Assembly: GCF_964212655.1 (NCBI RefSeq)
Contig: NZ_OZ156465.1
Location: forward strand, 3,782,001-3,846,000
Origin: Candidatus Thiodiazotropha sp. LNASS1
GTDB taxonomy: Bacteria; Pseudomonadota; Gammaproteobacteria; Chromatiales; Chromatiaceae
Reading direction: 5' to 3'
DNA length: 64,000 bases
The stretch's first letter is position 1. Each line of letters opens with the position of its first letter. Positions 6,261 to 37,280 of the stretch are shown piece by piece. The translations under genes and the position numbers were made by a program. The notes under the pieces were generated by a model, which was given only the letters and a program-made list of their open reading frames with translations, had not been told where the DNA came from and did no database searches.

Positions 6261-6354
6261 AATTTATTCCGATAACGTAGTGTGGTGTAAGAGAGTGTAC
6301 AGTTGAAATCCTATCCGTTGCCAGTTGTTTGATAGAATGTTCCTGAACGTCTAA

Positions 6355-8207: not shown

Positions 8208-8233
8208 TAGCGAGGAGAGTTCCTGAAAGCACC

Positions 8234-8425
8234 TTATGGATATCGAAGTGCTTGTCTTGCTAACCTTCCTGACATTAATGCTAAATGATCCTTCCATTGA
8301 TCCAACGTCCTTGTCACCAACTGTGTTCGTCGACAAACCGGGCACTCATAACGCGACTGTTCAATTTTCACATCCTTCTGTGTCTCGATCTCGGCCATCA
8401 ACGAAGAACAGTGTGTGCAGTGCAT
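8234..8425 (-). CDS. small zinc-ribbon-like protein
   Basis: The 63-residue product starts MHCTHCSSLM and carries CPVC about 24 residues later, giving a CxxC...CxxC pattern suited to one structural zinc. The remainder is basic and helical (TLDQWKDHLALMSGRLARQ). Reality is supported by an AGGGG ribosome site 8-12 bases before ATG and by a good terminator just after the stop. No specific family is recognised. Such proteins often bind nucleic acid or a protein partner, but nothing here shows which. Confidence 0.55.
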   Translation of the reverse strand: MHCTHCSSLMAEIETQKDVKIEQSRYECPVCRRTQLVTRTLDQWKDHLALMSGRLARQALRYP

Positions 8426-10272: not shown

Positions 10273-10332
10273 TTCCGGATCAACAACACCCGCTCAAGCA
10301 TGCTTGAATAAGGAGTTTGAATTTTCAGGAAT

Positions 10333-10376
10333 AAAAAAAACGCATATCAGCCGATCACAATGATCGGCGATATGCG
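10333..10376 (-). terminator. Rho-independent terminator for the Met-rich protein gene
   Basis: A long stem (CGCATATC plus GCCGATCA pairing with TGATCGGC plus GATATGCG, one bulged A, loop CAA) is followed on the minus strand by eight T residues. It terminates the minus-strand Met-repeat gene; the plus side lacks a T tract. Confidence 0.8.
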
Positions 10377-10560
10377 ATTATACAAGACTAGTTAATCTAG
10401 TTTTTTGTTGCACAACTTTTTTTATTTTTTCTCACATCTACCCATTAACAATAAGAGACCTTAACAATGCTGCGTGTCTCTTTACGCTCACTTTTTGTGC
10501 TAAGCGCCAGTCAGTTAGCTGCATATTATTGATATTATTGGTCGTTTTTGTATTGCTCCA

Positions 10561-11160: not shown

Positions 11161-11916
11161 GATTCGATCTCCAAATAGTGTAATTTTAATTTTGTAAGCT
11201 GCTGTTTTAATGTGCCTAATCGGCATAAGCTGCGTGCAAAAAACACACCATGAGACGATTCGGTTTCTGCACCGGGAAACTAAAGTGATGATATGCCCTT
11301 GATTTATAAATAATTTACACAAGAGATTTAGGGTGGGATATGATTGATGGCAGGCAGCTGTAAAAGAATGTTTATTTTTAAATACTTGACAGATTGGCAG
11401 TCTTTACACTGGATACTGACAATTTGTCATATCGAATTAACAAGGATCAGAGTCCCTTGTAGAGATATTTTCAGCATGTGTCTGTCCACATCATACAGCG
11501 AGGCCATCACGACCCACTACAGCATGTCTGCCACTCAATTGGTAAGTCTTGTTCCGACTTAAATCAAATAAATGAAATCATCCATCTCTGAGTTGCTGAA
11601 ACTCTGTACGAGTCATGTACTGCCATCTTACGGCAACTAAATACCGCCTCTGTGATTTTGATTTTGCCAATGGAGCGGCACTTAACCGAGAATGATGTTT
11701 TGGTGTGATAGTCTCTGCTCGCAATCTGATTCATCCCTGTCCGTACAGATCTTTACTAAGTTGTATATAGCCACTTTTTCCAATTATATTGAAACCGTTT
11801 TTCCCTCCGCTGCGTAAGTGATTGTGACGGGAGTATCCGATGCCGTTTCAGAAGAATGCTCCCGGTTGTAGTTCTTATATTTACAAACTTGTTTAACAAC
11901 AGAGGAGGGTACTTGA
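11161..11916. other. intergenic region, no supported gene
   Basis: About 750 bases between divergent genes. It must hold the promoters of the Met-rich gene and of the exported protein at 11917. Short frames here (72 and 85 codons) lack support. No strong repeat was seen. Confidence 0.35.
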
Positions 11917-12351
11917 ATGAAATCCCTATCATTTGGTTGGATTAAAACGGTGTTGCCACTGGCCGCACTTTTTGCTGCGCCCATGTGGGTTAATGCTGAA
12001 ACATTCACTGGTACGATAAATGGCCATGAGTGCGCACACAACGGCGACTCTTGTCCAGTTGAGAAACTTGATCCGCATATCGCGCTCGAGTCCGATTTTG
12101 TCTTGATGGTAGGTGAGGGTGATTATCTCTTCATGCCTAACCTGTCAAGGGATATCAAAGTCAGATACGTTCTCGATAACGTTCAGATCAAAGGTGAAAA
12201 ACATCCGAGATTCAATTCCATCAAGGTTTCTGAATTTAGCGTGAAGAAGGGTGGTAAGTATGTCACGGTGTGGACGCAGAAACAGGCGGATTTCGAATAT
12301 GAAGCGCTCTACAGAGATGGTTTGGCCTTTCCTGGACAGAAAGTCAATTGA
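11917..12351 (+). CDS. exported hypothetical protein
   Basis: A 144-residue protein with a Sec signal peptide ending at about residue 27 (MWVNA before ETFTG). The mature part starts with a small beta segment and a Cys/His-rich stretch (GHECAHNGDSCPVEKLDPH), then alternates strands with many charged residues. The family is not recognised. GAGGAGGG about 8-14 bases before the start is a strong ribosome site. The clustered Cys and His could bind a metal or form a disulfide. A TlpA-like thioredoxin gene follows 82 bases later, so the pair may be one operon and this protein a thioredoxin client; that is inference. Confidence 0.7.
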   Translation: MKSLSFGWIKTVLPLAALFAAPMWVNAETFTGTINGHECAHNGDSCPVEKLDPHIALESDFVLMVGEGDYLFMPNLSRDIKVRYVLDNVQIKGEKHPRFNSIKVSEFSVKKGGKYVTVWTQKQADFEYEALYRDGLAFPGQKVN

Positions 12352-12363
12352 ACCATAGGTTAA

Positions 12364-12408
12364 GCCAATTTGAAATTGGCGCTGGGTTCAGTTTTCAGCT
12401 GAACCCAG
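12364..12408. repeat. two adjacent hairpins between exported protein and thioredoxin genes
   Basis: GCCAATT/AATTGGC (12364-12380) and CTGGGTTCAG/CTGAACCCAG (12382-12408) form consecutive stems without a following T tract. They may be attenuating or mRNA-processing structures between the two genes. Confidence 0.45.
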
Positions 12409-12433
12409 GTTAAGCTGCTTGAGGTGGATTTGA

Positions 12434-12976
12434 ATGAAAAGTTCAATACTTGTTGTGCTCTATCTCATATTTGCCTCTACAGCCTCCTGGTCTGCGGGAT
12501 TAGGTATACGCACCTACTCGGATCCAAAATCTGCGTCTGACTTTTCCCTGCCGGATTTAACTGGGCGGATACACGAAAAGTCCGATTACAGGGACCAGGC
12601 TTATATAATCAGTTTTTGGGCGACCTGGTGTGTGCCCTGCATCAAAGAGCTGCCGGATTTGCAACGGGCGGCTGAGATCCTTGATGAAGAGAATATCACC
12701 GTTCTTACAGTCAACAGCGGTGAAACTCGTGAGGTCATCGAACGGTTTTTAGTGCAACGTTCCGTTACACTCCCCGTTCTCCTGGACCAGGACTCCAGTA
12801 TGCTGCGGCAATGGCGGGTGCTGGCTCTCCCTACCTCATATATCGTCAATGCGAAGGGACAGATTGTGGCACGTGTGGTGGGAGGCATTGACTGGGATGA
12901 GCTGTCCATACTGGCGCATGTACGTGCCTTGGTGGCAGCCAATCAAAACGATGATTCAGATCGTGAATCAAACTGA
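12434..12976 (+). CDS. exported TlpA-like thioredoxin-family protein
   Basis: A 180-residue protein with a signal peptide (cleavage near WSA-GL), acting in the periplasm. The AhpC/TSA-thioredoxin fold is shown by FSLPDLTG, the active site WATWCVPC (Cys66 and Cys69), and the cis-Pro loop LALPTSYIV. TlpA/ResA-type proteins reduce disulfides, for instance in apocytochrome c maturation or as a reductant for Msr. Several c-type cytochromes and an exported Msr fusion in the window are potential clients. GAGG stands 8-11 bases before ATG. The client is not shown by the sequence. Confidence 0.88.
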   Translation: MKSSILVVLYLIFASTASWSAGLGIRTYSDPKSASDFSLPDLTGRIHEKSDYRDQAYIISFWATWCVPCIKELPDLQRAAEILDEENITVLTVNSGETREVIERFLVQRSVTLPVLLDQDSSMLRQWRVLALPTSYIVNAKGQIVARVVGGIDWDELSILAHVRALVAANQNDDSDRESN

Positions 12977-13048
12977 CATATTCTCCTGAGCCATGATATG
13001 GGAAGCTAGAATTAATGGGAACAGCAGTGACTTTGATTCCTTACTATT

Positions 13049-13507
13049 TTATTGCTTGGGTGGGAAGGCGGGCGCTGCCTCGTATTTGTAGTCACCCTGG
13101 TCCGTCATGTAGCCACGCATATCAATGATGATATTGGTCTTGTGACGTCTACCCTCGCGGGCACGAACCGCATCGAAAAAGGTTTTACGCATTTTCCCGC
13201 CGCCTTCCGTATCCTGGTCGATGCTGAAGACGATATGCAGGGGTTCACCCGGTTTCCCCAGCGGGTGGGCGAGGGCATGCACGCGTTCGTTGTGAATTGT
13301 GTAGACCAGGATCTCCATCTTGTCATGCAGGTATGGAATACGAATGGAGAAGCCGGAACCCAAAGCGATATAGGCAATCAACAGGAAAAAGAGGGTGCCC
13401 AGAATATAACCACCATAACGGCGACCTGCAGAGATGATTACCAGTACGCCCCAAATTGCGATGAGAAAAAGAAACAGGTACTTGGCAGTCAGTGGATCGT
13501 TTAACAT
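13049..13507 (-). CDS. membrane protein, third gene of ExbB/ExbD-like cluster
   Basis: The 152-residue product has two transmembrane helices in the first 55 residues (about 9-27 and 32-50) and then a soluble domain with conserved-looking EILVYTIHNERVHALAHP and HIVFSIDQDTEGGGK. The family is not recognised. It begins four bases after the stop of the ExbD-like gene, so it is the last gene of a tight three-gene operon. It could be an accessory or output subunit of the predicted ion-driven complex. That role is inferred from operon position only. Confidence 0.65.
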   Translation of the reverse strand: MLNDPLTAKYLFLFLIAIWGVLVIISAGRRYGGYILGTLFFLLIAYIALGSGFSIRIPYLHDKMEILVYTIHNERVHALAHPLGKPGEPLHIVFSIDQDTEGGGKMRKTFFDAVRAREGRRHKTNIIIDMRGYMTDQGDYKYEAAPAFPPKQ

Positions 13508-13511
13508 ATGA

Positions 13512-14123
13512 TTATTTTTCCAGTCTTCTCAATGTGCCGTGGAAGATTTCGAACGGCTCAAAGGATTTACTCTCCTCTATCAGTTGCCGGTCCCGCATCT
13601 CAAATGAGATGACGCCTTTCTCCTGACCGGGATATTCCAAAGTCATCCTCTCTTCGTAGACGACATGCATAAGACGTCCTTCCCTATATCGAATGGAAAT
13701 ATTGACATCCACCGGGGTATTGCCCATACCGTTGTCGCTGTAGTAAACAATGGAAAAACGGTAGCGTCCGTCCGGGATGCCGCGAGAGAAGATGAACTCG
13801 TAGTTGAGTCCCGAGAAGTCCACATCGCGACCCAGGTCGTCACGTACCAGGTTGAATATCTCTCCGTAGGGTGAGGCATAGCCGACGTTTTCATTTTTTT
13901 TGGGGGCGTTGGCCCAGAGGTCGATATCGGCGGGGCTGTCAGGCGCCCAGGTGATCTCGGCAATCATGTCACCGGCGGCTTTCTCTATCTCGGTCCGGGT
14001 GCTCTCCTGCTGGACCTTGATAAGGGGGATCAGCAACACAACCAGAGTGAGCATCAGCAGTGCCAGCAGAATCAGCAGGTCACGAAAAACAATGGACATG
14101 CTGTCTTCGCGTGGACGGGTCAT
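13512..14123 (-). CDS. ExbD/MotB-like single-pass protein with periplasmic domain
   Basis: A 203-residue protein with a short cytoplasmic N-terminus and one transmembrane helix (about 16-34). Asp15 in FRDLLILLALLML sits where ExbD, TolR and MotB have their proton-carrying Asp (compare PFIDVMLVLLIIF of ExbD). The remaining 165 residues are predicted periplasmic, starting with SPADIDLWANAP and later GIPDGRYRFSIVYYSD. This resembles the beta-sandwich style of DUF2135-like domains rather than an ExbD or OmpA-like end. The gene starts three bases after the ExbB-like gene. I infer an ion-motive stator subunit with an unusual periplasmic output domain. Confidence 0.65.
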   Translation of the reverse strand: MTRPREDSMSIVFRDLLILLALLMLTLVVLLIPLIKVQQESTRTEIEKAAGDMIAEITWAPDSPADIDLWANAPKKNENVGYASPYGEIFNLVRDDLGRDVDFSGLNYEFIFSRGIPDGRYRFSIVYYSDNGMGNTPVDVNISIRYREGRLMHVVYEERMTLEYPGQEKGVISFEMRDRQLIEESKSFEPFEIFHGTLRRLEK

Positions 14124-16277: not shown

Positions 16278-17000
16278 TCAGATAGCGATATCCAGATCGA
16301 TAGAGTCCTTGAGGATGCGAATTCGACGCTTTGAATTGACGATATATCCTGCTTTGTCGAGCTTGCCCAGCATTCGGCTGATCGATTCCGGTGTGGCGCC
16401 CAGGTAGCGTGCGATATCGGTTTTTGTCATGGTCAATTTGATTTCGTTTGTCTGATTGCCCTGCCGAACCCTCACACGATGCAGAAGATCGGTCAGGAAC
16501 CCCATCAGCCTTTGTGCCAACAAATGGTGATGGGTGGATAGGGCTTCATGCTCTTTATGTGCGATCACTCGGCCCAATTCGGCTATCAACTGGTTCTGCA
16601 GGTCGGGATATTCCTTCGCCAGGATCGCCCAATTGTCGAAGGTCAGTTCACATACCCAGGTTTTTTCGATGGCCAGGGCATCCGTGGCGAATCTGCGCTG
16701 GTGGATGCCATCCGCGCCGAACAGTTCCCCTGCCATGTAGAAACCGCTGATATGCAGATCCCCATCGAATGTGACCGTCTCTGTCTTGACGGTGCCGGCA
16801 TGGACGACATATAGCGCATTACAGGATTCTCCCGCACGGTAGATATACTCACCGGGAAGATAGGGACCGATATTGGTGGTGGTGGTCTGTCCAGCTTGGT
16901 CTATTTGGTCACAATTGAGTCCGACATTGACGAAAAAACGCCGGAACAGACAGTGGGCACAGCGATGGTGTTGCTTTACTACACGTAGTTTGGGACTCAT
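16278..17000 (-). CDS. CRP/FNR-family transcriptional regulator, FNR-like cysteines
   Basis: About 240 residues from the ATG at 17000; a TTG eight codons earlier is the alternative. A cyclic-nucleotide-binding-type beta barrel spans about 45-150 and a winged helix-turn-helix lies near 190-230 (MTKTDIARYLGATPESISRML). The N-terminus carries Cys14 and Cys17 (CAHC) and Cys30, and Cys117 (WVCEL) sits where FNR has its fourth ligand. An oxygen-labile [4Fe-4S] cluster is plausible. However, spacing between the second and third Cys is 12 residues, not the 5 of E. coli FNR. It may control anaerobic genes here, for example nrdD, which has an FNR-box-like palindrome upstream. Confidence 0.85.
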   Translation of the reverse strand: MSPKLRVVKQHHRCAHCLFRRFFVNVGLNCDQIDQAGQTTTTNIGPYLPGEYIYRAGESCNALYVVHAGTVKTETVTFDGDLHISGFYMAGELFGADGIHQRRFATDALAIEKTWVCELTFDNWAILAKEYPDLQNQLIAELGRVIAHKEHEALSTHHHLLAQRLMGFLTDLLHRVRVRQGNQTNEIKLTMTKTDIARYLGATPESISRMLGKLDKAGYIVNSKRRIRILKDSIDLDIAI

Positions 17001-17324
17001 GGTTAGCCTGTGATCGGAATGCAATGAAGCGGGTTGAAATAGGCTTTCATCGGGTATCGGGCATATATCGGCATCTTCTGGTTGCCGGGATAGTATACGC
17101 GATCATAAGTGTGGAATGTAGAGATATCATTGACAATTTTAAATGGCTCAGGAACCTTTTTCATGTAAAGAGTTGTCTTTTTGAGTGATCATCAGATTGC
17201 ATGTCCAGGCTGATTTTCTCGAACAGGCAGAGTGTGGTGATATTGGGATTGTTACTGATTTCCCTTTTGCCAATGGTGGGGCATTGTCCCAAATACCCAT
17301 TTCAGCCTTATCAGGATAAACATC
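17001..17324. other. intergenic region, divergent promoters expected
   Basis: About 320 bases between the regulator gene (minus) and the Sel1 gene (plus). A 64-codon frame with a hydrophobic start (17201-17395) overlaps the better-supported Sel1 gene and is not called. No operator is clear. Confidence 0.3.
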
Positions 17325-25130: not shown

Positions 25131-26276
25131 ATGTTTACTAGTAATGGAGTCAAGTATTATTTGCTACTAATTTTCATTTATTTTTCAATTCATAACGCAC
25201 ATAGCAGAATAACAGATCAATACGCATTTACAGCAGAACCCAGTGAACAACAACAAGACTGCTCTAGTGTTATTGGTGAAGATCGACAAAGGGAGTGTTA
25301 TTGCAAAAAAAGACCCTTTCTTTGTGATGATCGGGAAAGTCGATTCTCTTCATATAAACCAAACTACGCTATAGGTCAAAGCACAGATGGCGATGATGGC
25401 TCCTTCGAGGTTAGATACTCACTTCGTTATAATTTTTTACGCCCACATTGCATGCCGATTAAAAAACCAAAAAACAAAAATGACTATATTCCAGAACTGG
25501 ATTGCCTCAGAGCATATGAAGAAAGGATTGGCGACATATTCTTCACCTTTACAGGCGAATTTGATTTTTTTCTTGGGACAAGAGATTCAAGCCCGGTAAT
25601 TAATAGATTAAGCAACCCAGCATTTAACTTTAGGAAGCATTTTGAAAAAGCCTTATCATATGAGTCACATACTATTGAATGGGTCAATTTAAGCATTGAG
25701 CATAGATCAAATGGCCAAAGTACGAATGCAGATGAAATGATAACGGAACCTGAGTCATCTGATTTTGGAAGATTTAGGGCGCAAGTCGAGCTAGAGGCTG
25801 GAAATCAAGAATACTTCGACTCAATAAGTAGAAGTGCAAATTATATTGCAGTTGAAAGTAAGATTAACTTTGGGACAGGCCATTCAGACAATGTACTGTG
25901 TGATACCACATTTAAATGTGTCAATGCATGGGTGAGTGCAAAGCTTTATCTATCAGATGAATCAGATGTGTTTTGGGGCGATCTATCAGATAAAGGAGTT
26001 AATATAGAAGACTACGATAGAATAAAAATCATAGTTTCAGATACCTTTAATACAAATATATCATCATTCCCCACTTCTGAGATAGGCCTCGAATGGACAA
26101 TTGGTGATGAATTACTTGATACTGACTCGTTTGACTTCTATATAGTTCTACCCTGGGTTCCTAATAATAACTTTAGACTTCCACTTTATCTACGAGCTCA
26201 TTATGGTCCCATGAGTACACTTTCAGATTACACAAAAGATCAAAACTCTGTAGGTATTGGCCTAGTATTTAAGTAA
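25131..26276 (+). CDS. outer-membrane phospholipase A-like (OMPLA) protein
   Basis: A 381-residue protein with a signal peptide (residues 1-24). The OMPLA signature is visible: NYAIGQS, the strand RYSLRYNFLRP, and the active-site motif HRSNGQS with His191 and Ser193 where E. coli PldA has His142 and Ser144. The third catalytic residue (Asn156 of PldA, in SWNR) is not evident; by eye the matching segment is SDFGRF. Several extra cysteines occur in the N-terminal region and an insert. The gene is much more AT-rich than the housekeeping genes around it, suggesting horizontal transfer. It could hydrolyse phospholipids, or have lost full activity. Confidence 0.75.
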   Translation: MFTSNGVKYYLLLIFIYFSIHNAHSRITDQYAFTAEPSEQQQDCSSVIGEDRQRECYCKKRPFLCDDRESRFSSYKPNYAIGQSTDGDDGSFEVRYSLRYNFLRPHCMPIKKPKNKNDYIPELDCLRAYEERIGDIFFTFTGEFDFFLGTRDSSPVINRLSNPAFNFRKHFEKALSYESHTIEWVNLSIEHRSNGQSTNADEMITEPESSDFGRFRAQVELEAGNQEYFDSISRSANYIAVESKINFGTGHSDNVLCDTTFKCVNAWVSAKLYLSDESDVFWGDLSDKGVNIEDYDRIKIIVSDTFNTNISSFPTSEIGLEWTIGDELLDTDSFDFYIVLPWVPNNNFRLPLYLRAHYGPMSTLSDYTKDQNSVGIGLVFK

Positions 26277-26325
26277 AGGGAGTAAAGGGAGTAAAGGGAG
26301 TAAAGGGAGTAAAGGGAGTAAAGGT
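26272..26325 (+). repeat. 9-bp tandem repeat AGTAAAGGG, six copies
   Basis: Five perfect units and one with a final G-to-T change begin inside the stop codon of the OMPLA-like gene and continue 49 bases beyond it. A simple-sequence array at a gene end could change by slippage, but because the stop is in the first unit the protein would not vary. Confidence 0.9.
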
Positions 26326-26375
26326 AAAGAGGTTCACTTTTACCCGAATGTCACTTGCTTATGCCAAGAATTACT

Positions 26376-26482: not shown

Positions 26483-28048
26483 ATGCCTTTGATTTTCGTA
26501 AGTTATCGTCGCGAAGACAGTGCCGGTCATGCTGGCCGTTTGTTCGATCGTTTGCAAACGCATTTCGGCAAGGACAATGTATTCTGGGATGTTTCCGGTA
26601 GTATTGAGCCAGGCGAGAAATTTGACTTGGCAATCGAACGTGCAGTCACTAGCTGCGATGTGCTTCTTGCCGTGATCGGCAGGCGGTGGTCAGACAGCCG
26701 CGACGTGGATGGTAACCGTCGGTTGGATAAGGACGATGATTTCGTGCGTCTCGAAATCGGCAAGGCGTTACAGCGCGATGTAAAGGTCGTCCCTGTTTTG
26801 GTGGATGGCGCTGAACTGCCCGGTGCCGATGAATTGCCCGAGGAACTCGCGCCCCTCACGCGGCGCCAGGTAATCGAACTGACCGAAACGCGATGGGATT
26901 TCGATGTCACGAAGCTTGTGGAAAGTATCGAACGGAGTTTTGTCGACGAACACAGCGTGGGCCGCAAGGGCTGGATACTGCTAGCCAGTACTACACTGGT
27001 AGTGGCAATTATACTCGGCGTCTGGCTATTGCAGGTCCAGATGGCACCTGATTCGGTGCCCGAAGTCGTGGATGTTCCGCCCAAGGTGTCGGATGGCGTT
27101 ACCTCCAAGCCGGATCGTAGTGCCGTTAGCGGAACGCAAGAACGAGTTCTAGTGCCGGCGTTGAAGGGAATGTCGCTGGATGCTGCCCGCACGCGTCTAC
27201 AGGAGGCAGGGCTGAAGGTGGGTGATCTGACTTTTCTCACTTTGGGCAAGTTCGCAGCCGGTACTGTGTATTGCCAACGTTCGAAAGAGGGAGTATTGGT
27301 GCGAAGCGGATCAGCCATAGGTCTTTGTGTGGAGCGCGAGAAACTTCCCGGCATCCACTTTTCCGGTCAGATCTTCATGACCAACAACCGGGTTTTCGAT
27401 CTAGATGGTGTAACAGGCTCGGCGCGCGGCGGCTTCGACATTCGTTTCGACACGTCGAACCCCTCGCAAAAACTTCTACAACCGAAGGAAGGTGCTGTTA
27501 TGGTCGATATGGAACGTCGAATGGTTGATGCCGAAAAATGCGCGACAGCTCCCCTATCGGACCAACCTGTACGGGTTCTGGTAGGACACACCTATTGCCT
27601 GCGGACCAGTGCCGGACGCTATGCGGCTATCCGCGTCGAGGATATCGCCGAAAAATTGAAGCTGAGCTTCGACACTTATTCTGAAGCACGTGTTAACCGC
27701 GGTTCGATCACGCTTGTGGACGGCGAAAGCTACCACTTCAGCAGCGGTGACAGCGGCCGGTACAGAGGCGGCGATTTTTATGTCACGATAGACGAAAATG
27801 GTGGCATGCAGTTCAATGCCAACAACGCTGGTCAGAAAGGTGTGCTTGATTTGGGAGACATTGGCTTGCTCGATAGCGCCGAAGTCAATACGGCATCATT
27901 ATCCGGTTTTTACAAGTTCGGCGTACCAGCCATTCCGGGGCATATCTACGTTTCGCCCGCACGTGAGGGCGAGGAGGGACACTTCATCATATTTACGGTA
28001 TCCGGGATGACAGAACATTCACTGACCATCGACTACCGTTTCGAGTGA
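26483..28048 (+). CDS. TIR domain - transmembrane - PASTA-like protein
   Basis: A 521-residue protein of unusual architecture. Residues 1-155 are a TIR domain: it opens IFVSYRREDS and has NVFWDVSGSIEPGEKFDLAIE, CDVLLAVIGRRW, and Glu91 in DDFVRLEIGKAL at the place of the NADase catalytic Glu. A transmembrane helix spans about 163-184. A PASTA-like domain follows at about 222-290 (VPALKGMSLDAARTRLQEAGLKVG). The last 230 residues are a beta-rich region I do not recognise. The TIR domain should be cytoplasmic and the rest periplasmic. Bacterial TIR proteins often deplete NAD in immunity; here an envelope-sensing input is inferred from topology. Confidence 0.85.
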   Translation: MPLIFVSYRREDSAGHAGRLFDRLQTHFGKDNVFWDVSGSIEPGEKFDLAIERAVTSCDVLLAVIGRRWSDSRDVDGNRRLDKDDDFVRLEIGKALQRDVKVVPVLVDGAELPGADELPEELAPLTRRQVIELTETRWDFDVTKLVESIERSFVDEHSVGRKGWILLASTTLVVAIILGVWLLQVQMAPDSVPEVVDVPPKVSDGVTSKPDRSAVSGTQERVLVPALKGMSLDAARTRLQEAGLKVGDLTFLTLGKFAAGTVYCQRSKEGVLVRSGSAIGLCVEREKLPGIHFSGQIFMTNNRVFDLDGVTGSARGGFDIRFDTSNPSQKLLQPKEGAVMVDMERRMVDAEKCATAPLSDQPVRVLVGHTYCLRTSAGRYAAIRVEDIAEKLKLSFDTYSEARVNRGSITLVDGESYHFSSGDSGRYRGGDFYVTIDENGGMQFNANNAGQKGVLDLGDIGLLDSAEVNTASLSGFYKFGVPAIPGHIYVSPAREGEEGHFIIFTVSGMTEHSLTIDYRFE

Positions 28049-29233: not shown

Positions 29234-29243
29234 CAGAATCACC

Positions 29244-29370
29244 GTCATCCCGGCGCAGGCCGGGATCCAGAATACTTGATGGTGAGGGTATTCCTGGATT
29301 CCGGCCTGCGCCGGAATGACGAAAATTCTCTGAAATTCGTTTTAAGCAAGTGCCATTCTTCTCTGACCCA
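29244..29370. repeat. dispersed palindromic element, long form
   Basis: A 27-base arm starting GTCATCCCGGCGCAGGCCGG (29244-29270) pairs with 29294-29320 around a 23-base loop. The tail, ending GCCATTCTTCTCTGACCCA, matches 26390-26450. It resembles non-autonomous palindromic (REP/MITE-like) elements common in proteobacteria. Confidence 0.8.
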
Positions 29371-29413: not shown

Positions 29414-29719
29414 TTATCGATCATTGTCACCAGAACACTGCCAGCCCCTCGTTTCTAATTTCTTAATGAACTCGACAGTTTTTCGCTCACAATAACTATC
29501 GTCATTTTCAGCTTTCCATAATGTACGTGGCATTACGTTTTCGTCTGGTTTTGTATAATAGACTTTGCAGGGCAATCTGGCGGGTTCATTTGGATAGAAG
29601 ATAACCATGTTCCTTGTTAGTTCCGCATAGTGACAGGTCCATGAATTTGCGAAACTCTCAGCTGGCATCATAAGAATAGTTAGTAGAAGCATCCAGGATT
29701 TGTAAATCAGATTCTTCAT
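29414..29719 (-). CDS. small exported protein with conserved-looking cysteines
   Basis: The start at 29719 is supported by GGAGAG about eight bases upstream; a longer frame from 29785 has none. The 101-residue product has a signal peptide (cleavage near SFA-NS) and a mature part with four Cys (WTCHYAE, PCKVYY, SYCERK, WQCSG), probably forming two disulfides. The family is not recognised. It lies downstream of the PD-(D/E)xK gene on the same strand, with a dispersed motif between them, so it may not belong to that module. Confidence 0.65.
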   Translation of the reverse strand: MKNLIYKSWMLLLTILMMPAESFANSWTCHYAELTRNMVIFYPNEPARLPCKVYYTKPDENVMPRTLWKAENDDSYCERKTVEFIKKLETRGWQCSGDNDR

Positions 29720-29764
29720 GACATCTCTCCAAATATATTCACACATAGATCCAACTTCAGGTGA

Positions 29765-29782
29765 CGGCCAAAAGCGGACATT
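29765..29782. repeat. dispersed CGGCCAAAAGCGGACATT motif, copy 1
   Basis: Lies between the small exported gene and the PD-(D/E)xK gene. Related copies are at 30375-30392 and, in reverse orientation, at 36956-36974, so the motif brackets the nuclease module and separates its genes. Confidence 0.6.
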
Positions 29783-29799
29783 CAAGGCTATCTTTTATA

Positions 29800-30339
29800 T
29801 TAGAAAGCAACATTCCGTGCTTCTTGCCTAACTCCATTTCCATACTCTTCTAACAAAAATATTCGTGAAGGAATGTCTAGCTCTAAGTAAATACCCAATT
29901 TATAGTTACAGACATGCTCAGGATGAACCAACCCATCTGCTGACCAAACATCATCGAAACTTGACTTCGTTAAGGCTCTTAATCGCTTTCGATCATTATC
30001 TTTTTCTACTTGCGGGCGGCTCGACTTCTTCATTTCTAAAGCAATCAGATTATCATTATTTACGGTGTTACCACGACTATGAAGAATTAAGTCACAATTA
30101 ATTGTAACAACCTCATAATTTTCATCCAGAATCGTTTTAATTTCTCCGTCTTGCTTTCGATTGTACTCAGGGTCTACAAAGTAGTCCTCTAAATCATACT
30201 CCTGTAAAAGATTGCTCATGTGGATGGATAAACGTCCACAAAGATTTCTCTCATTGACATCACCGAGAATACTTTCACGATCAGACTCAATGAATATCTC
30301 GAATGAACGTTTAAACAACTCTTTTAATTTATTTACCAA
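29800..30339 (-). CDS. PD-(D/E)xK nuclease-like protein
   Basis: A 179-residue protein starting with TTG; GGAG stands seven bases before it. The pattern is that of a small restriction-like nuclease: conserved Glu in NERNLCGRLSIHM, then VDPEYNR, then Asp in CDLILHSRG, then Glu-Met-Lys in LIALEMKK, giving D...ExK catalytic residues. Proteins of this layout (ERxLxxRLAxxL, DPEYNR, PDIIxHxRG, LxxExKK) occur next to mobile and defence genes. It has no signal peptide. It is the third gene after the giant protein on the same strand, 128 bases beyond the second. I infer a defence-type nuclease; the target is unknown. Confidence 0.72.
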   Translation of the reverse strand: MVNKLKELFKRSFEIFIESDRESILGDVNERNLCGRLSIHMSNLLQEYDLEDYFVDPEYNRKQDGEIKTILDENYEVVTINCDLILHSRGNTVNNDNLIALEMKKSSRPQVEKDNDRKRLRALTKSSFDDVWSADGLVHPEHVCNYKLGIYLELDIPSRIFLLEEYGNGVRQEARNVAF

Positions 30340-30374
30340 TTAACTACTCCATTACATCTATCGCAGTTTACATT

Positions 30375-30392
30375 CGGCCAGAAGCGGACATC
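30375..30392. repeat. dispersed CGGCCAGAAGCGGACATC motif, copy 2
   Basis: Lies between the second and third genes of the nuclease module, in the same orientation as the copy at 29765-29782. Confidence 0.6.
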
Positions 30393-30467
30393 TGTCAACT
30401 CACGCATATATTGACCATCAGGCCACCTTATACTGTATTCCTTAATAAAAATTGGGAGATTAACATA

Positions 30468-31193
30468 TTAGTAAGTACGCGCCTCAACCAAATACGGCCA
30501 TACCTTCTCCGCTATTTCAAACGGTAATTCATCGCAAACTGATTTCATCGAAGATACCGTAGCCCCCTTAATCTCAGGTGCCAAAGACCATATCCCTGAC
30601 AAAAGCGACCCCTTTTCAGTATCGAGCAGATTATATTCATTACGACTAAAAGTGATCTCATATATAGCATTGACTAAATGAGGCACCGCATCACGAACTA
30701 ATTCACCACCATCATCTGTAAATGCTTGGACAATATTCTGTATTTGCTCTTTTATATGGGATAACCCATCTTCAAACCCGTAAAGTATACATACCTTTGT
30801 AGCGTACGAAATAGAAACGCAGAAAGAGGCATACTCTAGTTTTAGGAGTTCGTAGAAGTCGGTATTTTTAACGAGGTTTTCAAAAGCAACATGCATATTT
30901 TCGGGTAACTTATGATGCGGATATAGGCAAAACAAATTCATCCAAATATTAACTAAATTGTCTTGATAAGAACCATCTATAAGATCCTTGTGGGTTCTTG
31001 CACGCACATCCTTAATTTGTTCCGCATTGAGTTCGTCAGTATTACCAAACCGGCCAAGCACCTCACAAGCATTTTGATCGAAGTAAGTGTTTATGATATT
31101 TGGTGCGATTTCTTGGTCTGCGTAAATATAGAAATGAATTATCTGAGCTCCATCGTGTTCGATAGTTACATGTTCACGAATAACAGACCTCAA
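30468..31193 (-). CDS. uncharacterised helical protein overlapping the giant nuclease gene
   Basis: A 241-codon frame that overlaps the 3' end of the giant gene by 20 bases. There is no ATG at its start; the first possible start is TTG (31193) with no ribosome site, directly after an A8 tract. Losing one A (or gaining two) in the transcript would join it in frame to the giant protein. The product is alpha-helical, with no signal peptide and no recognised motif; conserved-looking Cys and aromatic residues occur in LKLEYASFCVSISYATKVCILYG. It is either a coupled second subunit or a slippage-made C-terminal extension. Confidence 0.6.
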   Translation of the reverse strand: MRSVIREHVTIEHDGAQIIHFYIYADQEIAPNIINTYFDQNACEVLGRFGNTDELNAEQIKDVRARTHKDLIDGSYQDNLVNIWMNLFCLYPHHKLPENMHVAFENLVKNTDFYELLKLEYASFCVSISYATKVCILYGFEDGLSHIKEQIQNIVQAFTDDGGELVRDAVPHLVNAIYEITFSRNEYNLLDTEKGSLLSGIWSLAPEIKGATVSSMKSVCDELPFEIAEKVWPYLVEARTY

Positions 31194-34100
31194 TTTTTTT
31201 TGTAAGGTCTTTAGGGTCTATATTATTTAGGGCATAGCCAATCGACTGAAAAACATAGTTCATCTCATGAATATGTTTTGCATCTGAAATATCGGTAAAG
31301 GTTCGTTTTCCAACAAGGTTTTCGGAAAGTCCTAATTCACGTTCTTTTGACCTAAAAAACTCTTCAATATCATTTCCCGGATCGCCAATTTCCATCAGAA
31401 TGGAAATAACTTTATTTGCATGTAACCACGATATCTTTTGTTTCGTAAGTTTTGACCACTGATGAGTATGAACTGATTTTTCTATATCGTGCGACATCCA
31501 TCTTAGAATCGCAAAAAATGTAGCGTTGAGTTGTCCAATATTCTTACTTGTCAAATATGCTTCGAGGCGCAACAAAGCTTTTTTAGCAGTCTTCTTGTAT
31601 CCAAATTCAATAGCAAGATGTACATAATGCATAAGAGCCGTAAATGATAGTGTTGAATTACCGATATCATTTATCACTTGATTTCTATCTTTTTTACTAA
31701 GCTTACCAAGCTTTGATAAAATCGGGTCTGGCAGGTAACAAGGTAAATTAACATGTCGCTTAATGGCCTCCAACAAGCCATATTCCGCAATTAGTTCTTC
31801 TAATGATAGATTTAAATCGTTTTGATCTTCTTTGATAGGGTCAATTCGTAAGTACTGTGGCAACATTTTAATGCCAGAGCTTATTTCAACTGACGATATT
31901 TTTCCTGTTTTACGAATTTCACTACTGAGGTTTTCATAAAATTTAACAGCGCTATTTCTTAATAAGTCATGCAGGGACTCAATTCTTTCAGAAGGTTCTT
32001 CGCATGTTGTTATAGATTGCAACTTAACCCTTAATTCACGCTCAGAGATGTCTAATATTAGCTTATCCTTTACCAGCCTTTCGATCCTTTCCTTTTCTTG
32101 TTCCAGGAACAATAAGTTCTCAATGCTTGCAAGTCTAAAGGTTTTACTGTCATCAACGTTTTCAAAAATAAATACTGGGTAGCGGCTGTTCTCTTCTTCT
32201 AAAAATTTGACTAAGAATTTCTCCTTATCGTCATATGTACTAACTTCCCTAGGACTTCCTTTAGCAGCTTCAATCAAGTTATGTGCCAGCAGAACAGTTT
32301 CAAAATAATAATTATAAACAGGAAGAAGCGTGACCTCTTCTCCAAACCCAAATTTCCTGCGCACTTCTTTATCCGAAACTAATTCATCTCTAATGTCTGC
32401 TGGACATGCCCTAATAAGCCCCATCATCATTTTCTTATATAATTCAGTTGCCACTTCCTCATCTAGCTCTTCATCTAGTTCTTCTTTAGCCTCCTCTTTG
32501 ATATTCCCCAAAGACTCCATCGTTAGGTATTCTGATAATGTAGATATGAATTTCTTAAAAAGCCCTGCATTATTTTGTAACCTTTTGGAGATTATGGCTT
32601 TGTAACACCAGTCTAAATATTCTTCTTGTAAAGTCCTATCTTCGCTAACCTTCTTAGGCGAATTAAATGCCATTGCGTTGGTGAAATAGTTAACATGCCT
32701 AACAAGCCAGTATTTATCTTTGTCATCTTTAGACTTAATCCATTGTGGAGATATCGGAAAATTTTCTATATATAGATTATCTATTATCCAGTCACATTCA
32801 GCTTTTTTTCTATCAAGGTCTTTATGTGTGTCATCCCATATTGAAAGAATAGCTCGGTTAATCGTTTGGTGATATTGAAGAAGGAACTGTACATCCCCAT
32901 TCTGATTAGGAACTCGTTCTTTCTGTGTTGGGCTTAAAAGACCCGAATTATCTTGAAAACACCCAGAGTAGTACCTTCTCAGAAGTGCTAATTCCGGAGT
33001 TTCCACAATCGCCCCGTTATTAGATCTAGCATCCGTGAGATAGATTTGTAGGCCACTTGACGACAATGGTATAAAACGAGCGTTAGCTTTTCTAAGCTGA
33101 GACACTAAGTCTCGCTTCCTATTTTTGTTTATTTTTCCGTACTCTACTAACGCATCTAGGACATCGAGCACGCATATTGTCGGATTTGTACCAGCATTAT
33201 TGTATCCGTTAATCATCCTATCGTCAGACCAAATCATATATCTTTTTTCATTTGGGATTTTTAGAAGTGAATGCAATATAACTGTTTGAAAGCTTCCTGT
33301 GGCTATAAGCTCTTGATCTTCTGTAGAGTTATTTGCAGGCAATACTGAGTAAATCCCATTCTCTATTTTCTCACTTATGTTTGACCTTAACTCGCCAATC
33401 CAACTAGATAACTCCTGTCTATTTTTGTGTCCCAACAAAGTCTGCTTACAATCTTCAATAAAGAAATTAGTAACAATGATATTGTACGTATCTACAAAAG
33501 AAGAAAGTAAACCGGATATAGCTATCTCTACTAACAGACCATCATCACAATATATATTCTCTCCAGCATGCAAATTGTCTTTACCTGTATCAAATACGCC
33601 TTCCCCACCCAGCCTGTTAATAGCGTCATTTAATGTAGCTTGACTTATTCTCCCCTTCTGCTCCAAATCGCGAGCTACAAAGCTACAGTTAATTCTACAT
33701 TCCAGAGAAACTTTGTTATCGTCATTTGAGATATTTGACCATGTTAAATATCTTGCTCCAAGTTTATCAATTTTCGATATTTTATCAGCGAACTCTTTTT
33801 CATCTATGACAGTAAACGTTCCTTTATCTATTTCCTTGATGATCTCAGTAACTGCCTCTATTCGGTCTGGCTGTCCCTGACTAATATCATTCTTCATATG
33901 ATGAAGAAACTGAGAGGTTTCAAATGGTATTGATATCGGGGAAAACGTAGCTTCTATGTGATCAAGGATTCCCAGATGCTGGCACAGCAAAAGAGATGTA
34001 ATATCCATACATATGTTCCATTCCGTCGGGCTTGCTGGATATTTCTCGAAAACCTGCCTTCCCCCATGTCTTATAAACAGAGGCTTTGTAGTGGCTGGAT

Positions 34101-36720
34101 TTCCTATTTCCTCAGCGACATTCAAGCTAGAATGATACAAAACGGCAAGTGAGATATTCTCCAGTTCTGATACTAAATGTATTGGCGCCTGGCATAGATT
34201 ATAAAAATCTACTTTTTTTTGTTGGCGCGCAGGAGCTGATTGAACCATCTCAATGATTTCATCAAAGCTCTTTAGCTCTACACCGGGAAGTAGACCTTTT
34301 TCAGCATCTGTATAGAACCTTCTCGAAAGGTCGCTCATTTCTGATACTATGCCCAAGGTTAAACATAAATGATGAGCCGCAGCCACCCTTTCACGTTCAA
34401 TTCCTTTTTCGTCGGCAGCTTTCAATAATTCGATCGAAAAGTCTCTATCTTCATTTGACAATAAGAAAGAGTACCTAAGTAGCTGGCCAGCATTTAAATT
34501 AGTAAATGGCCTTAATTTTTTGAGAGTAGAAATAAATTTCGGAATATTGCCTTGAGTAACATATATTTCTGCAAGGCCAATAACATCGTTGGTATCTTCT
34601 GTTTCTTCAGCTAAATCTCTTGCATCTTTAATCGCTTGTGGCAAATGTCCTAGTGACTGTTGGGCAGCAAGCTTTATCCTCCTCACATTTAGTGGCATCT
34701 CTCCTTCACCAAAAACACCCTTATAGGTCTCTAAGATTCCAAATATCGATGAGTATTGAATTTTTTCATATAATGCTTGTAAGACTAGCTCCGTTATAAA
34801 CTCCGTTCCTACTTCGCTGACTATCTCATTGGCATTGTTAGAGATAAAATCTAATTGCTTACCGTAAAAGAGCTGCTGAACAGCATCACTTAATAAATCC
34901 TTAGGTTTGCTCCCATTAAGAATCTCTGATGCAAAACGTTCAAGATCTGTAAAGTCTTTAGATGATATCCCACGCCTAACTGCCTTGTTAAAGTAAATCC
35001 TATCCTTATAAATTGGATCTGCGCTCTCAATTTCTTCGTCGGAAACACCTTCATCACTTGTCTGAACAATCCAGTATTTCCATAAATCTTTCTGGCCTTC
35101 AGATACAAAAATAGCTTTGCTTGATTTTAATACATTAGCAGCCTGATCAACCTCTTCTAGCCTGATTAATATTGAACACAAGCCCAATACACTAGTAACA
35201 TTGGCTTTACCTTCCTTAATCAGGTTATTAAGCGATCTCTTGCTCTTTTGGCATAATTTTTTATCTAAAAGATTTCTTGATACACCCCACGCCAGAGCAG
35301 TCGAATGACAAGGGTTTGATGTTAATAGCTCTATACAATAGGTCTCGGCCTCTTTCCGTTTCTCCATGTCATTACAAAGACATGCCAATTTCCAAGTTTC
35401 GAACGCGCCAGCATCTTCTTCACCCAATTCACACTGAGCTATCAAACGTTCGAAAATGTCGTGAGCTTCTCTTAAAGCATCTATACTCGATTTATTTTTT
35501 TTGATAAGAGACCAATCTACAGGCTCAGGCCACGACAATATATGTTTAGGCACCCCCGAAGGAGAAAGCGCCTTGTAGTAAAGTAGCGCTCCTTTGGTTT
35601 GTAAAATCACCTTATCATTCAAAAATATTTTTTCGGCTTCATTTATCTCGGTTATCGCATCTTTTAAATTCTTCTCATATAAATAGCACCCAGCAAGTAT
35701 TCTATGCTTTTCGGCTCTTTTCTCTCCGTCACAATCGTAATTTGAGAGGACTTTTCTAGCTTCTTCGTGCTTATCTAATGCGGAAAGTAACGTTGCTTTC
35801 AACGTTGTGATATTTTCGTCTGAACTTTCTTTAATTGAGTTGTATGCTTCTTCAGCACCCTCTTTAGTCCATTTTATTAAGGTTCTTAGTTGAGATACTC
35901 CTTCTGGAATAAATAGCTCGTCAGCTTGTGATGCGAGTACTTCGGCTTGCTCTGTATCTTGATATTGTAGGAGCTTTATGTTTGCTTCAATTCTAAGAAT
36001 TTTAGCTCTAGTTTCCCGTTCCATTACCTCCCATCTAACAGTATCAGACTTTATACTATTGATTTCAGATAATGAGGTTCTAAACTTACCCTCTCTGAAC
36101 AACTTCACAACAGCATCAAAATCTTTAGAAGCGTATTTGTTAACCGTATCTATGTAAATATCCCTTGAAATGCTGTCTGGTTGAAACCCTTTAAGTTCAG
36201 CTCCACAAATCTTTTTCAAAAAATGCTCTGGAGGTTCAAAAAACCGAGAAACTATTTCTGGCTGACCTTTCAAATACTGGGTAATATTCCGATCCGACCA
36301 AGGTTCAAACTCAACGCCTTTTTTGGCAAGCTTTTTTCTACAAGCCTCAATAGCATCTTGTCGCTTTATCTGAGATAAGCTACATGCCACTAACAAGTGA
36401 AATGTTTTAACATTTATTTCTGCCCAATGCGTATCCCAGTGAGACAGAAACTCATCCACAGCATCAGTTATTTTTTGAGGACCGAAACTCTGGTAACATT
36501 TGCTTTGCCCTACCTCAATCGCGCCGTCTTTTCTGTCTGCCTTAATATCCATGCCATAGTCTGTCTCGCCACGAACGCCGTATCGGTCAGCCTTTTTTAT
36601 ATCGGGTAAACTATCAATAACGCTGCATGTTAATTCCTCAAATACATCGTCATTTAACCTCCACAACTCAGGGGGCGCTTCTGAGTTAAGTCCTGGCTTT
36701 ACTTTATCCTGATTTCCCAT
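31174..36720 (-). CDS. giant Mrr-like nuclease - helical repeat - PIN-like protein (putative defence system)
   Basis: A cytoplasmic protein of 1848 residues. Residues about 20-165 form an Mrr-type restriction domain: FEELTCSVI, GVRGETDYGMDIKA with Asp58, then IEVGQSK with Gln72 and Lys74 as the D...QxK site. Residues about 190-850 are helical TPR-like repeats. A PIN-like ribonuclease domain is suggested at about 900-1225: Asp906 in CMDITSLLLCQHLGILDHI, Glu934, the pair Asp1166-Asp1167 in MIWSDDRMI, and Asp1186. The last 600 residues are again helical. The gene is AT-rich and starts with ATG but a weak ribosome site. The combination of two nuclease types around a repeat scaffold suggests an abortive-infection or phage-sensing protein; this is inference. 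Confidence 0.75.
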   Translation of the reverse strand: MGNQDKVKPGLNSEAPPELWRLNDDVFEELTCSVIDSLPDIKKADRYGVRGETDYGMDIKADRKDGAIEVGQSKCYQSFGPQKITDAVDEFLSHWDTHWAEINVKTFHLLVACSLSQIKRQDAIEACRKKLAKKGVEFEPWSDRNITQYLKGQPEIVSRFFEPPEHFLKKICGAELKGFQPDSISRDIYIDTVNKYASKDFDAVVKLFREGKFRTSLSEINSIKSDTVRWEVMERETRAKILRIEANIKLLQYQDTEQAEVLASQADELFIPEGVSQLRTLIKWTKEGAEEAYNSIKESSDENITTLKATLLSALDKHEEARKVLSNYDCDGEKRAEKHRILAGCYLYEKNLKDAITEINEAEKIFLNDKVILQTKGALLYYKALSPSGVPKHILSWPEPVDWSLIKKNKSSIDALREAHDIFERLIAQCELGEEDAGAFETWKLACLCNDMEKRKEAETYCIELLTSNPCHSTALAWGVSRNLLDKKLCQKSKRSLNNLIKEGKANVTSVLGLCSILIRLEEVDQAANVLKSSKAIFVSEGQKDLWKYWIVQTSDEGVSDEEIESADPIYKDRIYFNKAVRRGISSKDFTDLERFASEILNGSKPKDLLSDAVQQLFYGKQLDFISNNANEIVSEVGTEFITELVLQALYEKIQYSSIFGILETYKGVFGEGEMPLNVRRIKLAAQQSLGHLPQAIKDARDLAEETEDTNDVIGLAEIYVTQGNIPKFISTLKKLRPFTNLNAGQLLRYSFLLSNEDRDFSIELLKAADEKGIERERVAAAHHLCLTLGIVSEMSDLSRRFYTDAEKGLLPGVELKSFDEIIEMVQSAPARQQKKVDFYNLCQAPIHLVSELENISLAVLYHSSLNVAEEIGNPATTKPLFIRHGGRQVFEKYPASPTEWNICMDITSLLLCQHLGILDHIEATFSPISIPFETSQFLHHMKNDISQGQPDRIEAVTEIIKEIDKGTFTVIDEKEFADKISKIDKLGARYLTWSNISNDDNKVSLECRINCSFVARDLEQKGRISQATLNDAINRLGGEGVFDTGKDNLHAGENIYCDDGLLVEIAISGLLSSFVDTYNIIVTNFFIEDCKQTLLGHKNRQELSSWIGELRSNISEKIENGIYSVLPANNSTEDQELIATGSFQTVILHSLLKIPNEKRYMIWSDDRMINGYNNAGTNPTICVLDVLDALVEYGKINKNRKRDLVSQLRKANARFIPLSSSGLQIYLTDARSNNGAIVETPELALLRRYYSGCFQDNSGLLSPTQKERVPNQNGDVQFLLQYHQTINRAILSIWDDTHKDLDRKKAECDWIIDNLYIENFPISPQWIKSKDDKDKYWLVRHVNYFTNAMAFNSPKKVSEDRTLQEEYLDWCYKAIISKRLQNNAGLFKKFISTLSEYLTMESLGNIKEEAKEELDEELDEEVATELYKKMMMGLIRACPADIRDELVSDKEVRRKFGFGEEVTLLPVYNYYFETVLLAHNLIEAAKGSPREVSTYDDKEKFLVKFLEEENSRYPVFIFENVDDSKTFRLASIENLLFLEQEKERIERLVKDKLILDISERELRVKLQSITTCEEPSERIESLHDLLRNSAVKFYENLSSEIRKTGKISSVEISSGIKMLPQYLRIDPIKEDQNDLNLSLEELIAEYGLLEAIKRHVNLPCYLPDPILSKLGKLSKKDRNQVINDIGNSTLSFTALMHYVHLAIEFGYKKTAKKALLRLEAYLTSKNIGQLNATFFAILRWMSHDIEKSVHTHQWSKLTKQKISWLHANKVISILMEIGDPGNDIEEFFRSKERELGLSENLVGKRTFTDISDAKHIHEMNYVFQSIGYALNNIDPKDLTKKIEVCYS

Positions 36721-37280
36721 AGTGAAACTTATAATTTTTATTTAAAAAGAAGCTATTTTTTCGGGTTCTCGGAATTCTACCGATTTCATCTTAAAACTCG
36801 CTCCACCTTCGTAACATATACTAGGCTTGAAAACAGAAAATATATTCAGTTAATCGCCAATCCTTTTTACCAATAAGTACAATTCAATTGGCCTATCATT
36901 TCCAAATCAATCATCAAGGCATGTAAATTCGGAATTAGAGGTAAACGACTTTAGCAAATGTCCGCTTTGGGTCGGTACCAGAAGTTTGGCCAATTCAGTC
37001 CTTAACATTCACTTGGGTTGCAAAGCAGTAGTTATTTCCATTCAGTTAGCAAGTTTGCACGCAGTATGCGGTGCAATATATACGTGATTTATACGATCCG
37101 AGAATAGGGAATTAAACCGGCTGATCAAAAAATAACTGAATGCAGTGAGTTATGCCTTCCATGGCAAATCCAAAAATATCTATAAGATTATCGAACAAAT
37201 CTAAGAATGGTCATTATGAGTCTAGTTTTAACCTGTAAACATCCAATTTATGGTGAATCCCTGCTTTACAACTTTTCAGT
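36721..37280. other. AT-rich intergenic region upstream of the nuclease module
   Basis: About 560 bases between the divergent border of the accessory region and nrdB. It contains the third copy of the AGCGGACATT-type motif (36956-36974) and is presumably the promoter region of the module. No gene is supported. Confidence 0.4.
36956..36974. repeat. dispersed TGTCCGCTTTGGGTCG motif, copy 3 (inverted)
   Basis: Reverse-complement relative of the motifs at 29765 and 30375, on the upstream side of the giant gene. With them it brackets the module. Confidence 0.5.

What the first reader, a model, noticed from the sequence alone, without database searches (positions are those of the whole stretch)
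29800..36720. Putative undescribed nuclease defence module built on an 1848-residue Mrr-TPR-PIN protein
A three-gene minus-strand set in an AT-rich repeat-flanked region. The giant protein has an Mrr-like D58...Q72xK74 nuclease end, hundreds of residues of helical repeats, and PIN-like acidic residues (D906, E934, D1166/D1167, D1186). A 241-residue protein overlaps it, and a PD-(D/E)xK protein follows. Two or three different nuclease folds around one scaffold, next to a TIR protein, looks like a phage-response system that I cannot match to a named one.
Basis: partly seen in the sequence, partly recalled or inferred. Interest (0 to 1): 0.85.

Follow-up and report, generated by a model that had tools for sequence, protein, structure and literature searches.

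The report
Giant nuclease-scaffold phage-defence protein, split
A bacterial DNA insert encodes one very large protein, here split into two reading frames, that joins a DNA-cutting end to a predicted RNA-cutting centre and belongs to a rare, poorly described branch of a predicted anti-virus protein class; the neighbouring 'third gene' looks like a separate nuclease.

Summary
The 1848-aa ORF is real and belongs to a rare, scattered family (cyanobacteria, rhizobia, Azospirillum, acidobacteria, gammaproteobacteria). A three-gene system is not supported. In 20 of 24 relative loci the gene is a single ORF of 1969-2274 aa, and the 241-aa 'second gene' matches those proteins' C-terminus (E 1.1e-7): it is the detached end of the same protein, after a frame break at an adenine tract. 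The 179-aa ORF resembles PD-Lambda-3_A and has no counterpart in 29 loci searched.
Architecture: Mrr-like nuclease, TPR, HTH, unusual split/double PIN, GreA/B-C-like region, helical repeats. The N-terminal effector is exchangeable (Mrr, caspase, esterase-like; elsewhere perhaps a separate upstream gene). This is the logic of the predicted TPR-GreA/B-C-PIN conflict system (PMC8195603), with different domain order, length and domain types: a variant.
The block lies downstream of nrdB with inverted repeats at its ends; one congener carries there, between similar repeats, a different defence-like operon (SIR2, SMC-ATPase, HD-CE/HATPase). A defence role is well supported by context, without a control; the mechanism (transcript cleavage, then DNA damage) is inferred.

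The parts
36196..36663 (-). Mrr-like restriction-endonuclease domain (giant residues about 20-175; D58, Q72, K74)
   Evidence: Profile of 15 relatives' N-termini gives 167 bits, best of 2000 shuffles 9.2; 6 of 16 N-termini scanned match Pfam Mrr_cat, the window's own does not; catalytic columns
34321..36153 (-). TPR-type helical repeat scaffold (residues about 190-800)
   Evidence: Pfam TPR_19 25.1 bits, cut-off 25, and ANAPC3 below cut-off; ANAPC3 in 10 and TPR_19 in 5 of 18 proteins scanned
34057..34266 (-). HTH upstream of double PIN (residues 819-888)
   Evidence: PF24407, 35.5 bits, cut-off 27; 13 of 18 proteins scanned
32941..34035 (-). Split/double PIN nuclease region (residues about 896-1260; D906, D1166-D1167-R1168, D1186)
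32116..32343 (-). Region at the place of the permuted GreA/B-C domain (residues about 1460-1535)
   Evidence: Position of PF24388 hits in relatives: L022 8.5e-13, L013 1.1e-7, L004 0.0014 and L024 0.029 (the last two below cut-off); no Pfam hit in the window itself; family profile 15.3 bits, E 0.0024, best shuffle 6.6; beta-rich in the model
31201..32088 (-). C-terminal helical region carried by the giant ORF (residues about 1545-1840)
   Evidence: Family profile for 1550-1838: 105 bits, best shuffle 5.2; helical in model
31174..31201 (-). Frame junction: adenine tract plus the overlap of the two frames
   Evidence: Sequence; tract positions; 20 of 24 relative loci continue as one ORF
30468..31193 (-). 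241-aa ORF = detached C-terminus of the giant protein
   Evidence: Profile of 20 relatives' C-termini: 28.4 bits, E 1.1e-7 among 2001 sequences, residues 83-240 collinear to the end
29800..30339 (-). Separate 179-aa PD-(D/E)xK-like ORF, PD-Lambda-3_A-like; passenger rather than partner
   Evidence: PADLOC PDLC03986 E 1.1e-7; no match at E <= 1 in 29 loci
36957..36986 (+). End repeat (nrdB side) of the variable block
   Evidence: Inverted repeat; similarity with congener L074 ends exactly here; similar repeat there
29753..29782 (-). End repeat (far side) of the variable block, inverted
   Evidence: in L074 similarity ends at window 29719, some 35 nt short of the repeat, and the L074 copy lies about 260 nt further on
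30375..30391 (-). Further repeat copy, between the 241-aa and 179-aa ORFs

Best explanation
It is one giant stand-alone conflict (anti-phage) protein of about 2,090 residues, split in this genome into 1848 + 241 codons by a frame break. The constant core (TPR, HTH, split/double PIN, GreA/B-C-like region, helical C-terminus) is proposed to sense infection, perhaps at a phage-occupied RNA polymerase, and to cut RNA with the PIN. The exchangeable N-terminal effector, here a Mrr-type DNase, is proposed to be released as the killing step. SHOWN by comparison: one gene in most relatives, exchangeable effector, PIN-like fold with conserved acids, foreign composition and patchy distribution, variable location. 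INFERRED: RNA polymerase as target, RNA cleavage, DNA cleavage, order of events, activity of this split copy.
For: Single ORFs of 1969-2274 aa in 20 of 24 relative loci and the C-terminal profile match of the 241-aa ORF. Exchangeable N-termini: of 16 scanned, 6 match Mrr_cat, 1 Peptidase_C14, 1 DUF676; three cores lack the domain (L022, L023, L024), and upstream genes carry PNP_UDP_1 (L022) or pentapeptide repeats (L023), none recognised in L024; an alpha/beta-hydrolase-like gene precedes the core in L048. PIN. Permuted GreA/B-C in relatives. Variable site with a different defence-like operon between similar repeats in one congener. Patchy: 3 of 369 class genomes, own included, at E <= 1e-10; 15 of 72,556 plasmid records. 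Published sister system and mechanism: PMC8195603 section 7. In the one-protein system DS-3, whose PIN is split between N- and C-terminus, catalytic mutants lose phage defence (PMC13092281, passages).
Against: No PADLOC model matches the giant. The window's own GreA/B-C region has no Pfam hit, its N-terminus no Mrr_cat hit, PF20698 is below cut-off, and Foldseek alone gave nothing at E <= 0.001. The window copy has a broken frame, G at 1223 where 20 of 20 relatives have E, and R at 1017 where 19 of 20 are acidic, so it may be failing. The repeat-bounded arrangement was seen in one congener only; with up to 4 mismatches the repeat was absent from five of the six other loci read (L073, L075, L076, L077, L079) and stood once, away from the site, in L078. 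Defence genes around relatives were not measured against a control.
Confidence: 0.7

Rival explanations
1. A three-gene operon of separate nucleases on one scaffold.
For: Same strand, 20-nt overlap between ORFs 1 and 2, close spacing.
Against: The 241-aa ORF is homologous to the C-terminus of the giant's own relatives; the 179-aa ORF has no counterpart in 29 loci, and a repeat copy separates it from the rest.
Confidence: 0.04
2. A canonical member of the TPR-GreA/B-C-PIN system.
For: Variable effector + TPR + PIN; partial PF20698 match; a same-genus genome holds a 1345-aa protein with GreA_GreB (786-860, below cut-off) and PIN (977-1112, over cut-off).
Against: The 8 PF20698 positives among 249 phylum genomes have ORFs of 1103-1469 aa; of five proteins of that type scanned, two show GreA_GreB (below cut-off), both before the PIN. 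Here the order is reversed, the PIN is double/split with its own HTH, the GreA/B-C type is permuted in relatives and undetected in the window, and the protein is at least 600 aa longer.
Confidence: 0.15
3. A decaying former defence gene: the frame break and the lost conserved acids mark a pseudogene (compatible with the best explanation for the family, not for this copy's activity).
For: Frame break; G for E at 1223 and R for an acid at 1017; no match to the block in a same-species assembly.
Against: All 1848 + 241 codons are otherwise open and related to the family through to the end; the break is at an adenine tract, where an assembly error or slippage is also possible; in Agrobacterium L013 the protein is encoded as two ORFs overlapping by 4 nt.
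Confidence: 0.3
4. A non-defence RNA-turnover or transcription-quality protein that happens to be horizontally mobile.
For: PIN-like fold near exosome and ribosome-processing PINs; GreA/B-C-like domain in relatives.
Against: Mrr, caspase and esterase-like domains swap at the N-terminus; rare and scattered; sits where a congener carries a SIR2/SMC/HATPase operon.
Confidence: 0.1

Closest known systems
TPR-GreA/B-C-PIN conflict system (Kaur et al. 2021, eLife, PMC8195603; section 7 read whole, other passages seen; Pfam PF20698)
   Same: Stand-alone gene, one of many N-terminal effectors (REase among them), TPR repeats, PIN, GreA/B-C; rapid evolution
   Different: About 2,100 instead of 1,103-1,469 aa; HTH + double/split PIN lies before, not after, the GreA/B-C-like region; GreA/B-C is of the permuted Pfam type in relatives and not detected in the window; long extra helical C-terminus; caspase and esterase-like effectors seen here
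Pfam HTH_upst_double_PIN (PF24407) and Permuted_GreAB-C (PF24388) proteins
   Same: Same protein family by Pfam domain (13 and 2 of 18 proteins scanned)
   Different: Only domain models; no paper describing the system was found in searches of the held library
DS-3 of DefensePredictor (PMC13092281, passages seen)
   Same: One-protein anti-phage system with a PIN split between two parts of the chain
   Different: Parallel in the paper's words only; sequences were not compared
PD-Lambda-3 (PADLOC PDLC03986; listed as PD(D/E)XK in PMC10952713 and called abortive infection in PMC13190303; passages seen)
   Same: The 179-aa ORF matches the model PD-Lambda-3_A (E 1.1e-7)
   Different: No other PD-Lambda-3 model was hit among 14 window proteins scanned; not part of the giant's system

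Membership tests
TPR-GreA/B-C-PIN conflict system | Exchangeable N-terminal effector domain | tested here: met
   Mrr_cat, Peptidase_C14, DUF676 among 16 N-termini; three cores without one, with a candidate upstream gene in two of them
TPR-GreA/B-C-PIN conflict system | TPR repeats | tested here: met
   TPR_19 at its cut-off in the window copy; in other members
TPR-GreA/B-C-PIN conflict system | GreA/B-C domain | tested here: inconclusive
   Permuted_GreAB-C in relatives at the same place; window region without Pfam hit, family profile 15.3 bits against 6.6 for the best shuffle
TPR-GreA/B-C-PIN conflict system | PIN domain of the PF20698 type | tested here: inconclusive
   23.4 bits, cut-off 27.8, 906-987 only; fold is PIN-like
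TPR-GreA/B-C-PIN conflict system | Order: effector - TPR - GreA/B-C - PIN | tested here: not met
   HTH 819-888 and PIN about 896-1260 precede the GreA/B-C-like region about 1460-1535; in L051 and L040 GreA_GreB precedes the PIN
TPR-GreA/B-C-PIN conflict system | Mostly stand-alone gene | tested here: met
   Single ORF in 20 of 24 loci; in L022 and L048 a preceding gene overlaps it by 4 nt, so not without exception
HTH_upst_double_PIN proteins (PF24407) | Score over Pfam's gathering cut-off | tested here: met
   35.5 bits, cut-off 27
Mrr-type restriction endonuclease domain | D...(Q/S)xK core | tested here: met
   D58, Q72, K74; 14 of 20 relatives alike; the motif as a defining feature is recalled
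Mrr-type restriction endonuclease domain | Pfam Mrr_cat hit in the window protein | tested here: not met
   No hit for the window copy; 6 of 16 N-termini scanned hit
PD-Lambda-3 | Component A together with a further component | tested here: inconclusive
   179-aa ORF hits model _A; no other PD-Lambda-3 model hit in 14 window proteins; that a B component exists is recalled, and the rest of the genome was not searched

The most novel reading that the evidence does not exclude
A distinct class of giant immune protein in which two interleaved PIN halves build one composite RNase site (D906 from the first half, D1166/D1167 from the second) on a TPR scaffold tied to RNA polymerase through a permuted GreA/B-C domain, with a swappable killing domain in cis or in trans, and with its C-terminal part switched by slippage at an adenine tract.
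Probability: 0.1. Interest if true: 0.8.

Novelty: new variant of a known kind. Interest (0 to 1): 0.5.

Why it matters
If right, it adds a second, much larger architecture to a class of predicted immune proteins thought to act on hijacked RNA polymerase, gives a clean test of the 'RNA first, cell death second' idea (two separable active sites in one chain), and points to the place next to nrdB as a variable site with defence-like cassettes in this genus, which can be mined for further systems. It also corrects a likely error of annotation: the apparent second gene is the protein's own end.

Tried and rejected
Single-sequence scan of genome contigs with the giant found none; an alignment-based scan found 10 loci. 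PADLOC, NCBIfam and PHROGs gave nothing useful for the giant. PDB sequence searches with N-terminal and core profiles gave no credible match, nor did the 179-aa ORF. Fold search with the 1041-residue model was filled by helical repeat proteins; the smaller PIN model was needed. The viral structure library gave no match at E <= 0.001. Phage records hold no relative of the giant or of the 179-aa ORF, and the viral-contig scan confirmed none of 49 candidate stretches. Pairwise BLAST of the 241-aa ORF with three relatives gave one weak collinear match, E 0.014, and two chance-level results; the profile settled it. The end repeat is not a common genome-wide element: with up to 3 mismatches 11 places against 5 for the reversed control pattern; of the five places with 0-2 mismatches three are in this block and one elsewhere in the window. 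An empty site was not shown: in the same-species assembly G711 the contigs end near the site. The split-PIN idea rests on alignment ranges, as model coordinates were not at hand.

Rows dropped before counts: the script kept only loci whose longest ORF exceeds 1900 aa and left out L015 by name, so of 24 loci (L004-L027) four are not in the 21-row alignment used: L011 (in pieces), L013 (two ORFs), L015 (a different 1365-aa protein that shares the Mrr end) and L021 (cut by its contig). The 20 kept are not independent (several close cyanobacterial and rhizobial copies). The 29 loci include L015 and overlapping pairs (L026/L049, L027/L050 and, by equal contig length, probably L022/L047); flanks vary and some are short.
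Full report
What is there. The three ORFs are at the stated places. The block looks foreign by composition: giant GC 0.376 and GC3 0.33, 241-aa ORF GC3 0.36, 179-aa ORF GC3 0.33, against nrdB GC3 0.85; other parts of the window are also moderately AT-rich.

One protein, not two. A protein search found relatives in 15 of 72,556 plasmid records, a search of 369 genomes of the class found 3 including the window's own, and an alignment-guided scan of the genome collection gave 10 loci. Of the 24 loci L004-L027, 20 hold a single ORF of 1969-2274 aa (the script kept ORFs over 1900 aa); of the other four, L013 has two ORFs, L011 is in pieces, L021 is cut by its contig and L015 is a different protein. 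So the 1848-aa ORF lacks about 250 C-terminal residues. A profile of the 20 relatives' C-termini matches the 241-aa ORF with 28.4 bits (E 1.1e-7 in a set with 2000 shuffles; the two shuffled alignments printed score 5.8 and 4.2 bits), collinear to the end. The junction lies at an adenine tract, one of three 8-base tracts in the giant ORF. Whether the break is an assembly error, slippage or decay cannot be told here. The copy also has G at 1223 (20 of 20 relatives E) and R at 1017 (19 of 20 relatives acidic). In Agrobacterium L013 the protein is also encoded as two ORFs, overlapping by 4 nt, at another place.

The third ORF is a neighbour. The 179-aa ORF matches PADLOC PD-Lambda-3_A (E 1.1e-7). 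It has no match at E <= 1 in 29 loci. Three plasmid records hold a relative; the one on a Pukyongiella plasmid sits near qatC and qatD.

Exchangeable effector. N-termini include a caspase domain (one member, by annotation Leptolyngbya L007) and a DUF676 esterase-like domain (Agrobacterium L013). L022, L023 and L024 lack the Mrr part. In L022 and L048 a preceding gene overlapping the core by 4 nt encodes a phosphorylase-superfamily (PNP_UDP_1) or alpha/beta-hydrolase-like protein; in L023 a pentapeptide-repeat gene ends 9 nt before the core; the gene before L024 has no Pfam hit (ORF starts are mechanical). The same core with different killing domains, in one chain or perhaps in two, is the strongest sign of a conflict system.

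Place in the genome. Downstream of nrdB the congener G009 (NrdB 99% identical) matches the window down to 36957 and again at 29414-29719; between these it has another block of about 8.3 kb with similar inverted repeats at its ends, the nrdB-side repeat being the exact end of similarity, the far-side one not. That block encodes SIR2_2, a 207-aa protein, an SMC/AAA_15 ATPase, an HD-CE + HATPase protein and a C92 peptidase (PADLOC hits are partial). Three congeners (L075-L077) have about 2 kb between nrdB and a relative of the 123-aa ORF; in a fourth (L078) the distance is near 10 kb and includes a Schlafen AlbA_2/HATPase protein. These loci do not carry the repeat at the site. The same-species assembly G711 has no match to the block, only to its flanks; beside nrdB its contig carries a Mutator-type transposase. 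So this is a variable site that has taken up defence-like cassettes. How they move is unknown. Genes near relatives on annotated plasmids include a multiubiquitin/ThiF set (L007), VapBC and an HsdR-like gene (L013), a serine/threonine kinase and phosphatase (L014), transposases and integrases, and others with no evident link to defence; type I restriction lies beside L015, which shares only the Mrr end in the search. I had no control for this, so it is description only.

Known or new. Kaur et al. 2021 (PMC8195603, section 7 read in full) predicted a stand-alone conflict protein with EAD10 or one of 13 effectors, TPR, GreA/B-C and PIN, acting on RNA polymerase. Proteins over the PF20698 cut-off had ORFs of 1103-1469 aa (8 of 249 phylum genomes). 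Of five proteins of that type scanned, two (L051, L040) show GreA_GreB, below cut-off and before the PIN. L051 is from same-genus genome G006, so both architectures occur in this genus. The window's protein differs in order, size and domain types, so I file it as a variant, not a member. PF24407 is rare: 4 of 190 relatives and 3 of 398 phylum genomes, own included in both. Pfam already has models for its HTH and permuted GreA/B-C, so curators know these domains. I found no paper that describes the variant in searches; the library lacks most subscription journals.

Mechanism. Most likely the core senses infection and cuts RNA, perhaps at the polymerase, and the Mrr end attacks DNA as a last resort. 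This follows the published prediction for the sister system. Nothing here tests it.

Noticed in passing
L074 (G009:C18:30000-46000) 5487-13838: A different defence-like operon (SIR2_2, 207 aa, SMC/AAA_15, HD-CE + HATPase, C92 peptidase) between similar end repeats at the same site in the closest congener.
   Followed up: partly
window 26483-28048 (+): TIR-domain protein with a likely transmembrane helix (read by eye) and a PASTA domain; the matching stretch of congener L074 lacks it, so it is also in a variable place.
   Followed up: partly
window 29414-29785 (-): 123-aa ORF with a likely signal peptide (read by eye); similar copies near nrdB in congeners and two copies in L074. It marks the far side of the variable site.
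   Followed up: partly
window 25131-26276 (+): Phospholipase A1-like protein (PLA1 E 1e-4, below cut-off), followed by a 9-bp tandem repeat at about 26272-26333.
   Followed up: no
window 29235-29329: 36-nt inverted-repeat element (CCGGCGCAGGCCGG type) with a further copy near 26367; looks like a dispersed repeat.
   Followed up: no
window 16278-17024 (-): 248-aa ORF with a weak PADLOC match to a Pycsar cyclase (2.8e-4).
   Followed up: no
L051 724-4761 (-), same-genus genome G006: TPR-GreA/B-C-PIN type protein of 1345 aa; part of it resembles window residues 48-312 (E 4e-4).
   Followed up: partly
L007 2636-5002: Multiubiquitin / ThiF / DUF6527 set next to the caspase-bearing relative in Leptolyngbya.
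   Followed up: no
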